Shown here piece by piece: positions 41,455-44,949 of a stretch of 53,239 nt of DNA. Each line of letters begins with the position of its first letter. Within the stretch, counting starts at the first letter, position 1. Source of the stretch: an uncultured Eubacteriales bacterium (GTDB lineage: Bacteria > Bacillota > Clostridia > Oscillospirales > Ruminococcaceae); assembly GCA_900314975.1 (NCBI GenBank), contig OMXI01000013.1:1-53239 (forward strand), given 5' to 3'. The notes below the pieces were generated by a model. It did no database searches, was not told the DNA's origin, and was given only the letters and a program-made list of their open reading frames with translations. The position numbers were made by a program, and so were the translations under genes.

Positions 41455-41651
41455 AATCAAAAATCACGGTGACTGCACAACAAAATGCGGTCACCGTGAT
41501 ACTGTATTGAGCAAAATAAAAAGCAAGTCAGCTGTTCACGGTTATAGGACTCCAATTGTCCCAATCGACTTCAACTGCTTGCAGATAAGCAAGTGAACTG
41601 CTTGCCGATATAGAACGCCAATTGTCCCAATCAGCAAACGTCACTTGCTCT
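41455..41651 (-). ncRNA. Candidate small RNA with two tandem hairpin modules
   Basis: Read leftward, a consensus promoter (41658-41686) should start transcription near 41651, and a strong terminator ends it near 41459, giving about 195 nucleotides. Two successive hairpins follow the start. The first has arms AGCAAGTGA/TCACTTGCT (41641-41649 with 41588-41596). The second has arms near 41572-41582 and 41523-41534, about 11 pairs with one bulge. Each apical part carries the same 24-base segment, on the plus strand TATAGRACKCCAATTGTC plus CCAATC (41543-41566 and 41609-41632), differing at two positions. The transcript has no credible ribosome site. A frame through it would encode a repeated DWDNW peptide but begins upstream of the promoter. 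It is divergent from the deformylase gene. No known RNA family is recognised. Confidence 0.65.
41459..41500 (-). terminator. Terminator of the candidate small RNA
   Basis: ATCACGGTGAC (41463-41473) pairs with GTCACCGTGAT (41490-41500), 11 perfect pairs. Only on the leftward reading does a T run (TTTTTGATTT) follow. Confidence 0.85.
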
Positions 41652-41657
41652 GCTAAT

Positions 41658-41686
41658 AATATATCACAATCCGAAGAAAGTGTCAA
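41658..41686 (-). promoter_or_regulatory. Promoter of the candidate small RNA
   Basis: TTGACA (41681-41686), exact 17-base spacer, TATATT (41658-41663) reading leftward. Confidence 0.75.
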
Positions 41687-41734
41687 TACCCCCGAATCAA
41701 AATCTATCAGCACATCAGGATAAGGAGCAATAAT

Positions 41735-42145
41735 ATGATAAGACCCATAGTAAAAGACGTCCTGCTGCTTGCGCGCAAAAGCACCCCCGCAGGAAAAGAG
41801 GATATGCAGATCATCACCGACCTACGCGATACGCTGCAAGCAAACCGCGAGCATTGCATCGGCATGGCGGCAAATATGATAGGCTCTTTAAAGCGGATAA
41901 TCATCGTCTCCACCGAGCTTGGCGATATGGTAATGATAAACCCCGTTATCGCTTCAAGAAACGGTAAATACGAGACTGAGGAAGGCTGCCTGTCGCTTGT
42001 CGGGACAAGAAAAACGCAGCGCTTTGAGAGCATAACCGTGCGCTACCTTGATGAAAACTTCACCGCGCGTAAAGGCAGATTTTCGGGACTGACCGCGCAG
42101 ATAATCCAGCACGAATGCGACCACCTCGACGGCATAATCATATGA
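41735..42145 (+). CDS. Peptide deformylase-like metalloprotein
   Basis: 136 residues with motif 2 EGCLSL (metal Cys) and motif 3 QHECDHLDG (HExxH). Motif 1, normally G-x-G-L-A-A-x-Q, reads GMAANMIG, so the Gln that polarises the substrate is Met. Removal of the N-formyl group would be expected, but the change and the short length suggest the divergent second deformylase often seen in Clostridia. AAGGAGC precedes the ATG. Confidence 0.82.
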   Translation: MIRPIVKDVLLLARKSTPAGKEDMQIITDLRDTLQANREHCIGMAANMIGSLKRIIIVSTELGDMVMINPVIASRNGKYETEEGCLSLVGTRKTQRFESITVRYLDENFTARKGRFSGLTAQIIQHECDHLDGIII

Positions 42146-43785: not shown

Positions 43786-44949
43786 ATGAAAGAAAACAAC
43801 AAAATCAAAGCAGCAGCTCTTGTGCTTGCTATGTGCATACTCGCCTCGGGCTGTTCAAGTACCTCGTCAAGCTCGTCCGAAAGCAGCGGCGATACATCAC
43901 CGAGTATATCCTCGCAGCACGCGCAGGACAGCTCCGCAGCAGACGAAAGCTCGTCAAAAAAGGACAAGTCGGCGCGCTCCGACACAAACTCTGCGGCTGA
44001 CTCCTCAGGCACAGAAAGCAGCGGGGATTCAAGCAAGACAAAGCAGCGCAAGCAAAAATCGCAAACCGACAGCAGCTCCGCAGAAACAGACTCTGACAGC
44101 ACGTCTGACGGTTCATCGGACAGCAGCTCGGACAGCTCAAGATCAGGCTCCAAAAAGCAGCGCAAAAAGCGTTCCACTGACAGCAGTTCGTCAGACACCG
44201 CTTCCGAAAGCAGCAGCGCTTTAGCATCATCAGACAGCAGCGAGGCAAAAACAAAAAAGTCTAAAGCCTCGACCGACACAAGCTCGTCAGCAAGCGATAC
44301 GGGCAGCAGCAAGTCTGCAAAGCGCAGCAAAAAATCAGCTTCAAGCAGCACAGCCGATTCGGACAGCTCGCAAAGCACAGCGAACAGCTCGGCAGCCGCA
44401 GCAGTCACAAACACAGTAAGCACCGAAAGTTCTTCGTCAGAAGATACCGAGCAGAAAACCGCTGACACCGACAGTTCCTCGGCAGCCGAAACCGAGCAGA
44501 AAGCAGCAGACACCGACAGTTCCTCGGCAGCTGAAACCGAACAGAAAACCGCTGACACAGACAGTTCTTCGGCAGCAGATACCGAGCAAAGTGCAGCTGA
44601 CACCGACAGCTCTGCCGAAAGCAGCGAACAAACACAAAGCGAGCAAAAGAAAGAACGTCGCCGCAAGCCGAAGGCAGACAGCGACACCGACAGCACTTGC
44701 GCTGAAAACGGCAGCGTAAAGCCGCACAAAAAGCGCCCCGCAAACTCCGAAACAGCGCAGGACGAAACATCTGCGAACAAAAAGCCTCGCAGACATAAAG
44801 CAGCAGACAGCAGCGCGCAAGACGAACAGGACAGCACCACCACCGAAAAGCCTGCAAAGCCTCCAAAGCACAGCAAAACAGATAGCGCATCAAGCGAGGA
44901 CAGCACGCAAACCGAAATGACCGAAAGCAGTTCAGACACTTCCGAATAG
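43786..44949 (+). CDS. Wholly low-complexity Ser/Asp/Thr-rich lipoprotein
   Basis: 387 residues. The signal peptide ends in lipobox LASGC (Cys about 23). Everything after it is low complexity: Ser/Asp/Thr/Glu runs broken by basic clusters (KQRKQK, KKQRKKR, KRSKK, KKERRRK, KKPRRHK). Residues about 221-275 are near-perfect 15-residue repeats of the type TEQKTADTDSSSAAE, three complete and one decayed. No globular domain is visible. AAAGAGGG precedes the ATG. A surface-anchored, disordered, perhaps phosphorylated or glycosylated spacer or wall-binding polymer is possible; the function is unknown. Confidence 0.8.
   Translation: MKENNKIKAAALVLAMCILASGCSSTSSSSSESSGDTSPSISSQHAQDSSAADESSSKKDKSARSDTNSAADSSGTESSGDSSKTKQRKQKSQTDSSSAETDSDSTSDGSSDSSSDSSRSGSKKQRKKRSTDSSSSDTASESSSALASSDSSEAKTKKSKASTDTSSSASDTGSSKSAKRSKKSASSSTADSDSSQSTANSSAAAAVTNTVSTESSSSEDTEQKTADTDSSSAAETEQKAADTDSSSAAETEQKTADTDSSSAADTEQSAADTDSSAESSEQTQSEQKKERRRKPKADSDTDSTCAENGSVKPHKKRPANSETAQDETSANKKPRRHKAADSSAQDEQDSTTTEKPAKPPKHSKTDSASSEDSTQTEMTESSSDTSE
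44446..44625 (+). repeat. 45-base coding tandem repeat, four units
   Basis: Units at 44446-44490, 44491-44535 and 44536-44580 are almost identical at DNA level, with a fourth, diverged unit after. DNA-level identity shows recent expansion. Confidence 0.8.

What the first reader, a model, noticed from the sequence alone, without database searches (positions are those of the whole stretch)
41455..41686. Independent small RNA built of two tandem hairpins with an identical apical segment
A consensus promoter (TTGACA-17-TATATT) and an 11-bp intrinsic terminator bracket about 195 bases on the minus strand that contain no ribosome site. Inside are two successive hairpins whose arms differ but whose apical parts share a 24-base segment with only two mismatches, including CCAATTGTCCCAATC exactly. 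Each apex can fold to ATTG-GGA-CAAT. Repeated hairpins presenting the same loop are the layout of protein-sponging RNAs such as CsrB or 6S-like decoys, and GGA in a loop is the CsrA motif. No csrA is in view, so the partner is open. I recognise no known family.
Basis: partly seen in the sequence, partly recalled or inferred. Interest (0 to 1): 0.78.

Follow-up and report, generated by a model that had tools for sequence, protein, structure and literature searches.

The report
Hairpin RNA from phage toxin genes
The window holds a stray copy of an undescribed, roughly 70-base hairpin RNA whose gene often lies on the opposite strand inside the end of a predicted RNA-cutting domain (MuF_C) carried by phages and other mobile elements; it probably acts as the antidote to that domain, and stray copies and tandem arrays in bacterial chromosomes look like immunity genes made of RNA.

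Summary
In detail: on the minus strand a near-consensus promoter (41686-41658) leads into two tandem hairpins (41651-41586, 41585-41520) sharing an apex, with a T-tract and a second terminator. The CsrA/CsrB reading fails: the GGA is paired and the loop is AAUUGG. A covariance model built from these two hairpins alone finds relatives and opens an RNA family without Rfam match. In nested copies the RNA gene lies antisense at the 3' end of the MuF_C domain (a predicted BECR-fold RNase) of phage and ICE-like proteins. Of 27 testable MuF_C loci found by the domain, 21 have a perfect TTGACA-17-TATAAT antisense promoter. Promoter and hairpin exceed synonymous recodings in most loci, controls along the genes are near flat, and 19 of 20 stem pairs show two-sided changes. 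Of 51 copies in 396 family genomes, 27 are not at a MuF_C end; some form arrays of 2-5 units resembling different toxin alleles; the window is such an orphan. E. coli phage and prophage-like loci repeat both arrangements. I read it as an RNA antidote, most likely binding the RNase domain; antisense silencing is the main rival. The RNA gene is well supported by comparison; expression and function are inferred.

The parts
41658..41686 (-). sigma70-type promoter TTGACA-17-TATATT of the RNA
   Evidence: 11 of 12; same placement, about 5-6 nt before the first stem, in relatives
41586..41651 (-). hairpin 1: stem, apical UGGGAC(AAUUGGC)GUUCUA; no T-tract of its own
   Evidence: (z -6.0); used to build R1
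41520..41585 (-). hairpin 2: stem, apical UGGGAC(AAUUGGA)GUCCUA
   Evidence: (z -3.4); blastn to MT835857.1 E 2e-7; used to build R1
41513..41522 (-). T-tract directly after hairpin 2 (TTTTTATTTT), as in single-hairpin relatives
41463..41500 (-). second intrinsic terminator (15-nt arms), followed by a T-rich tail on the minus strand
41518..41713 (+). remnant of the MuF_C C-terminal reading frame (ASQLFTVIGLQLSQSTSTACR*, then ASELLADIERQLSQS...), broken by stops, showing descent from a toxin-nested copy; no MuF_C domain in front of it
   Evidence: (the only MuF_C match over the cut-off in this genome is on contig C43)
40778..41446 (+). flanking gene, predicted membrane protein of unknown function, convergent with the RNA
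41735..42145 (+). flanking peptide-deformylase-family gene, divergent from the RNA
   Evidence: PF01327

Best explanation
The window carries an orphan member of a new family of small hairpin RNAs that act as antidotes (immunity RNAs) to MuF_C domains. Shown by comparison: (1) in most MuF_C genes examined here, the antisense strand just past the domain holds a promoter, a ~65-nt hairpin with a similar 7-nt apical loop, and a T-tract; (2) in most loci these are stronger than the protein sequence requires, and the stem changes on both sides; (3) the same RNA gene also exists away from MuF_C, in chromosomes and prophage-like regions, singly or in arrays whose units resemble different MuF_C alleles. 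Inferred: MuF_C is a BECR-fold RNase effector; the RNA, driven by a consensus promoter, is made wherever the element's DNA is present and neutralises the domain, most likely by direct binding of the stem-loop (a type III-like RNA-protein antidote); orphan copies protect the bacterium, or a rival mobile element, from incoming MuF_C proteins. In the window the coding frame is broken, the RNA is kept, and it has been duplicated into two hairpins behind one promoter.
Confidence: 0.55

Rival explanations
1. Antisense (type I-like) control: the RNA pairs with the MuF_C mRNA over about 70 nt, through its UUGG loop, and blocks or destabilises it; orphans silence incoming related genes in trans.
For: Complementarity in cis is given by position in every nested copy. 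The loop UUGG fits the YUNR U-turn motif of antisense RNAs (recalled, not tested). The five L212 array units are 80-92% identical to toxin RNAs, so trans pairing is possible.
Against: It would act inside very long messages (3027-aa open frame in the own genome). Stem changes are often compensated and strong folding persists in orphans. The loop core is shared across alleles rather than diversified. Window hairpin 1 has no close target among the toxin loci held (best 75% over 76 nt, E 0.005).
Confidence: 0.25
2. The RNA is a substrate, guide or cofactor of the MuF_C domain or of the element (for example a decoy, a packaging signal or a replication/transfer signal) rather than an antidote.
For: The shared apex around AUUG could be a cleavage or recognition site, and nested copies are tied to mobile elements and phages.
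Against: Arrays and orphans away from MuF_C are hard to explain unless the RNA helps its carrier; they could still be selfish.
Confidence: 0.12
3. A mobile or selfish terminator-like cassette without trans function that spreads by recombination among element genes.
For: Tandem duplications in frame (L157), in the window and in arrays; a copy at the start of an unrelated gene (L079).
Against: Near-perfect promoters kept for an RNA with no product would be odd; two-sided changes in stems; the same nested position, at the end of MuF_C, in Bacillota, Treponema, Moraxella and E. coli phage copies.
Confidence: 0.06
4. An artefact: promoter and palindrome are by-products of the conserved MuF_C C-terminal codons.
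For: Promoter and apex do coincide with conserved motifs (GLQLP, IIIH, NIVK).
Against: Synonymous recoding removes both in most loci; orphans with stops or frameshifts keep them.
Confidence: 0.02

Closest known systems
Type III toxin-antitoxin systems (ToxIN, CptIN, TenpIN; the last two names recalled)
   Same: Predicted RNase toxin paired with a small structured RNA; RNA units may be tandem (window, arrays)
   Different: RNA gene lies antisense inside the toxin's own coding region with its own promoter and is not co-transcribed upstream; the toxin domain is part of large polyvalent proteins; stand-alone RNA arrays exist
Type I toxin-antitoxin systems (TxpA/RatA, BsrG/SR4; names recalled)
   Same: Antisense RNA overlapping the 3' part of a toxin region, own strong promoter, intrinsic terminator
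   Different: Toxin is not a small hydrophobic peptide; structure covaries; RNA persists and multiplies away from the toxin gene
Orphan immunity-gene arrays of polymorphic toxin systems (titles and abstract starts seen)
   Same: Tandem, diverse stand-alone copies resembling the antidotes of several toxin alleles
   Different: Here the units are RNA genes; the immunity genes in those papers encode proteins
MuF-C/PBECR domains of polyvalent proteins (Iyer et al. 2017, PMC5512222)
   Same: The protein partner; predicted there as BECR-fold RNase or RNA-binding domain
   Different: The words promoter and antisense do not occur in its main text; no nested RNA in the passages seen
CsrB/CsrC and 6S RNA
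   Same: Stand-alone RNA, repeated hairpins
   Different: GGA is not in a loop; no 6S-like single long hairpin; no Rfam match

Membership tests
Type III toxin-antitoxin | toxin is an RNase of ToxN type | tested here: inconclusive
Type III toxin-antitoxin | RNA antitoxin encoded upstream of and co-transcribed with the toxin gene | tested here: not met
   in nested copies the RNA lies on the opposite strand at the domain's 3' end
Type III toxin-antitoxin | RNA binds and inhibits the toxin protein | not testable with these tools
   no binding data
Type I toxin-antitoxin | toxin is a small hydrophobic peptide | tested here: not met
   MuF_C is a ~100-aa globular domain in open frames of 240 to over 4000 residues
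Type I toxin-antitoxin | RNA complementary to an adjacent toxin mRNA | tested here: met
   nested antisense in 24 of 51 places; not met for the other 27, the window included
CsrA-sponging RNA (CsrB/CsrC) | GGA motifs in hairpin loops | tested here: not met
   GGA is paired; loop AAUUGG
Known Rfam family | score above a gathering threshold | tested here: not met
   window, 19 and 7 further loci: no matches
Immunity-gene array of polymorphic toxins | tandem diverse antidote genes without the cognate toxin | tested here: inconclusive
   arrays of 2-5 RNA units found, some units weak; antidote activity untested

The most novel reading that the evidence does not exclude
Bacteria and mobile elements hold RNA-based immunity against MuF_C RNase effectors. 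Each effector gene carries its own antidote RNA gene nested antisense within its coding sequence, so toxin and antidote cannot be separated by recombination; recipients capture the antidote alone, stack variants into arrays, and keep them in chromosomal loci as a memory of effectors met, the RNA equivalent of orphan immunity-gene arrays. The window is such a captured antidote, sitting in a hotspot where a sister genome keeps a type I-C CRISPR-Cas system.
Probability: 0.42. Interest if true: 0.95.

Novelty: categorically new. Interest (0 to 1): 0.9.

Why it matters
A consensus-promoter RNA gene conserved inside the coding sequence of a predicted RNase effector, on the other strand, and again as free-standing arrays, is an arrangement for which I saw no precedent in the listings of ten full-text searches of the open-access library (several listings were cut at 8-20 rows of more papers) or in Rfam. 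If it is an antidote, it explains how polyvalent-protein RNases are carried safely, adds RNA to the known kinds of polymorphic-toxin immunity, and gives a sequence handle (model, loop, promoter) to find such immunity in gut bacteria and E. coli. It is directly testable in K-12, because phage PhiR5_2 (recorded host MG1655) carries a nested copy.

Tried and rejected
CsrB/CsrA and 6S: rejected because the GGA is paired and Rfam is empty. A coding reading of the minus-strand DWDNW frame: set aside (17 of 41 relatives with the loop motif have a stop in that frame, 7 of 48 lack the motif), although the nearest relatives share it. DNA search of the window RNA over 29 genomes of the genus gave short matches in 24, best other than self 5e-7 and to the promoter only; in the nine loci I read, and in a scan of all 33 loci then held, there was no other TTGGGACAATTGG with up to one mismatch. 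R1 over the same genus found one real weak relative, G014 (E 0.05). Plasmid collection with the window RNA and with L087: no match. Viral pattern scans gave 4 and 25 hits, most of them chance; by inspection L092, L111 and L113 look like relatives (R1: only L092 under 0.01; R2: L092 1e-7, L113 0.09, L111 none; L092 and L111 have MuF_C beside them). Domain alignment of all 18 MuF_C was too diverse for the search for related loci, so only the phage-type subgroup (A3) was scanned in genome contigs: the 21-of-27 count describes that subgroup and its neighbours; one of its two search peptides covers the codons under the RNA's T-tract. Alignment A6 (48 rows) left out L144, L146, L154, L164, L167, L171, L175 and the hits L081, L086, L090, L111, L113, L092; L122/L154, L128/L164, L131/L167 and L132/L171 have identical RNAs, so the 50 loci are not 50 independent events. 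R2 contains the window hairpins, so their R2 scores are not independent evidence. RNAalifold alone finds only the 4 apical pairs on A6; the 20-pair structure is mine, taken from single-sequence folds. In one search the toxin-like frame was picked by motif; one search repeats it by alignment (18 of 29 disrupted, some by paired gaps that may be alignment noise). In one search three E. coli orphans were folded at wrong offsets; folds them rightly (all long hairpins). E. coli prophage sRNA papers (PMC13192938: outline, abstract, passages, section 17; PMC4104026: passages) do not describe this hairpin in what I read; PMC9503650 and PMC5576092 were seen as passages only. The PDB profile search gave nothing useful (best E 0.17). 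L208 is a likely false R2 hit. Structure libraries that were not searched or a family not listed prove nothing about other folds.

Full report
What is in the window. On the minus strand, TTGACA-17-TATATT (41686-41658) is followed after 6 nt by two tandem hairpins, 41651-41586 and 41585-41520, a T-tract at 41522-41513 and a second terminator at 41500-41463. Folding is far better than shuffles (z -5.8 for the pair). Both apices are a UGGGAC/GUYCUA stem around AAUUGG[C/A]. The promoter alone is not significant; comparison makes the case. The genome is 2.92 Mb in 91 contigs; a genome of the same genus has a contig of exactly the length of the R. bicirculans 80/3 chromosome (G001:C1, 2240877 bases; L158).

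The site. The flanking genes are a membrane protein and a peptide-deformylase-family gene. In the nearest relative (G020) the same gap holds Cas3, Cas5c, Cas8c and Cas7c and CRISPR-like repeats (seen); in G028 what looks by eye like a histidine kinase and regulator (not family-scanned); in four others a short gap or a small open frame. R1 finds no copy in these six loci. So the RNA sits in an insertion hotspot and is absent from the relatives read there.

Finding the family. DNA search of the window RNA hits one phage-collection record, MT835857.1, at E 2e-7. A covariance model from the two hairpins alone (R1) scores that place at E 2.2e-12 and finds six more genomes of 396. Each of these seven places has TTGACA-17 or 18-TATACT in front and five or more T behind. 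Apical stems differ but pair: GGGAC/GUCC, GGAU/AUCC, GGGA/UCCC, GGAA/UUCC, GGGC/GCCC.

Is the RNA more than a shadow of the protein? MuF_C was searched by itself. In 247 family genomes there are 18 places over the cut-off in 15 genomes; 17 of 18 have a 10-12/12 promoter on the antisense strand right after the domain. In the collection of 84,980 species genomes, a scan with the domain of the phage-type subgroup (A3) gave 28 loci; of 27 that run on, 21 have TTGACA-17-TATAAT perfectly, 3 have 11, 2 (Treponema) 10 and 1 (Moraxella) 9 of 12. The domain query overlaps the RNA by about 12 nt (T-tract and foot of the stem); the promoter is outside it. I recoded each gene synonymously with its own codon use (400 recodings for promoters, 100 for folds): the antisense promoter beats recodings at p <= 0.05 in 43 of 50 loci and <= 0.01 in 37; the antisense fold has z <= -2 in 40 of 50, median -2.9. 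The same test at six other offsets (40-51 loci each, 40 recodings) gives median z of -0.4 to +0.6 and promoter means within 0.15 of the recodings; 0 to 5 loci per offset reach z <= -2. Exceptions at the right place: promoter p above 0.05 in L135, L143, L144, L145, L153, L170 and L175; fold z above -2 in L134, L143, L145, L146, L147, L158, L162, L163, L170 and L174. Many loci are related, so they are not independent events.

Structure. On 48 RNAs (window included) a 20-pair hairpin has 72.9% of cells paired (63.7% shuffled), 19 pairs changed on both sides in some sequence, 114 such cells against 49 in shuffles, covariation 0.355 against 0.210, 0 of 500 shuffles as high; the number of pair types is not above shuffles (80 of 500). 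Sliding the partner by one column lowers the score to 0.282 or 0.158, further slides to 0.15 or less. RNAalifold alone proposes only the four apical pairs.

Orphans and arrays. With the larger model R2, 34 of 396 family genomes (22 of 126 genera) have 51 places. 24 are nested at a MuF_C 3' end and 27 are not; 20 genomes have nested copies, 18 have others and 4 have both, the window's genome among them (checked in the stretches held, mostly 1.5 kb or more each side; three of the 27 lie within about 1.2 kb of a MuF_C domain but not at its end). In a sample of 398 genomes of the phylum only 5 match, including the own genome and G091 of the own family. Of 29 orphan units, 26 fold at z <= -2, median -4.0; 18 have a stop or an uneven gap in the toxin frame and 11 are still open. 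L212 has five units about 113 bp apart, each with a 12/12 promoter and each most like a different toxin RNA (80-92%); unit 4 is 68 of 69 identical to the RNA of the MuF_C gene in L131. The array lies beside a zeta-toxin gene. Three species of one genus keep 3, 3 and 1 units (two of them weak, E 0.02-0.04) downstream of the same UvrD/PcrA-type helicase gene; on the other side lies a flavin-reductase-like gene in L216 and L223 and an IS110 transposase gene in L215 (of these, Pfam was run on the L215 helicase, the L215 transposase and the L216 reductase). In 25 orphan-to-toxin comparisons, changed stem pairs are kept 85 times (34 by two-sided change) and broken 47 times; substitution rates are loop 15%, stem 17%, unpaired 20%, so the loop is not strikingly favoured.

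E. coli. Phage PhiR5_2 (PV340546.1, host MG1655) has a MuF_C domain (E 2e-25) in a large hypothetical protein with the same antisense hairpin: z -4.0 against recodings, the lowest of the windows slid over 1.3 kb (three others at -2.2 to -2.4), a T5 tail, and a weak promoter TTGCGA-17-TATTTT. Of 5426 E. coli genomes, 117 match a 141-bp query from it at E <= 0.01; 9 cover at least 80% (LPD38 protein gene). Of the 20 rows listed, 9 are that gene and 11 are 69-bp hairpin-only matches with no annotated gene. The six hairpin-only copies read lie beside PerC-like, ProQ/FinO-family, SSB and primase or DUF927 genes, have an upstream sequence with TATAAT unlike that of the phage copy, and their four alleles fold as long hairpins. 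One shows a G-C to U-A double change in the apical stem. An O157:H7 LPD38 gene has other arms around the same apex (z -2.2).

Reading. The RNA gene is real by comparison. Because it is tied to a predicted RNase domain, driven by a consensus promoter, kept and multiplied away from the domain, and varied in step with domain alleles, I take it as an antidote. Binding of the protein is favoured over antisense because structure covaries and persists in orphans, and because proteins delivered with DNA could not be stopped by silencing a message; this last step is inference.

Literature and libraries. No Rfam match for the window and 26 further locus sources. The listings of ten full-text searches of the open-access library show no RNA antisense to MuF_C; several listings were cut, and subscription papers are not covered.

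Noticed in passing
L073 (G020:C17:3500-12500): The sister genome carries Cas3, Cas5c, Cas8c and Cas7c (type I-C) plus CRISPR-like repeats between the same two genes that flank the RNA in the window.
   Followed up: partly
L218 9317-9386 (G000:C43:189316-189385): The window's own genome has a MuF_C gene with a nested RNA, and a second hairpin with an 11/12 promoter about 200 bp N-terminal to the domain, antisense in the same gene.
   Followed up: partly
L212 8414-9415: A zeta-toxin gene (PF06414) lies next to the five-unit RNA array.
   Followed up: no
L224 2572-3084 and L091 1484-2092: Orphan RNAs lie near SLOG/YpsA-like genes: the L224 gene matches PF06908; in L091 a gene with a TGHRPEKL start, directly downstream of the hairpin in the same direction, looks alike by eye but was not scanned (its neighbour 914-1402 was, with no match).
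   Followed up: partly
L235, L238, L239, L240: E. coli orphan hairpins sit at one syntenic place beside PerC-like regulators and a ProQ/FinO-family RNA-binding protein, with several alleles of the apical stem.
   Followed up: partly
L157 from about 3300: The RNA-encoding stretch appears to be duplicated in tandem and in frame inside a MuF_C gene (EKSQNLFERWG twice).
   Followed up: no
window 43786-44949: Very Ser/Lys/Asp-rich low-complexity predicted protein with repeated TEQKTADTDSSSAAE units.
   Followed up: no
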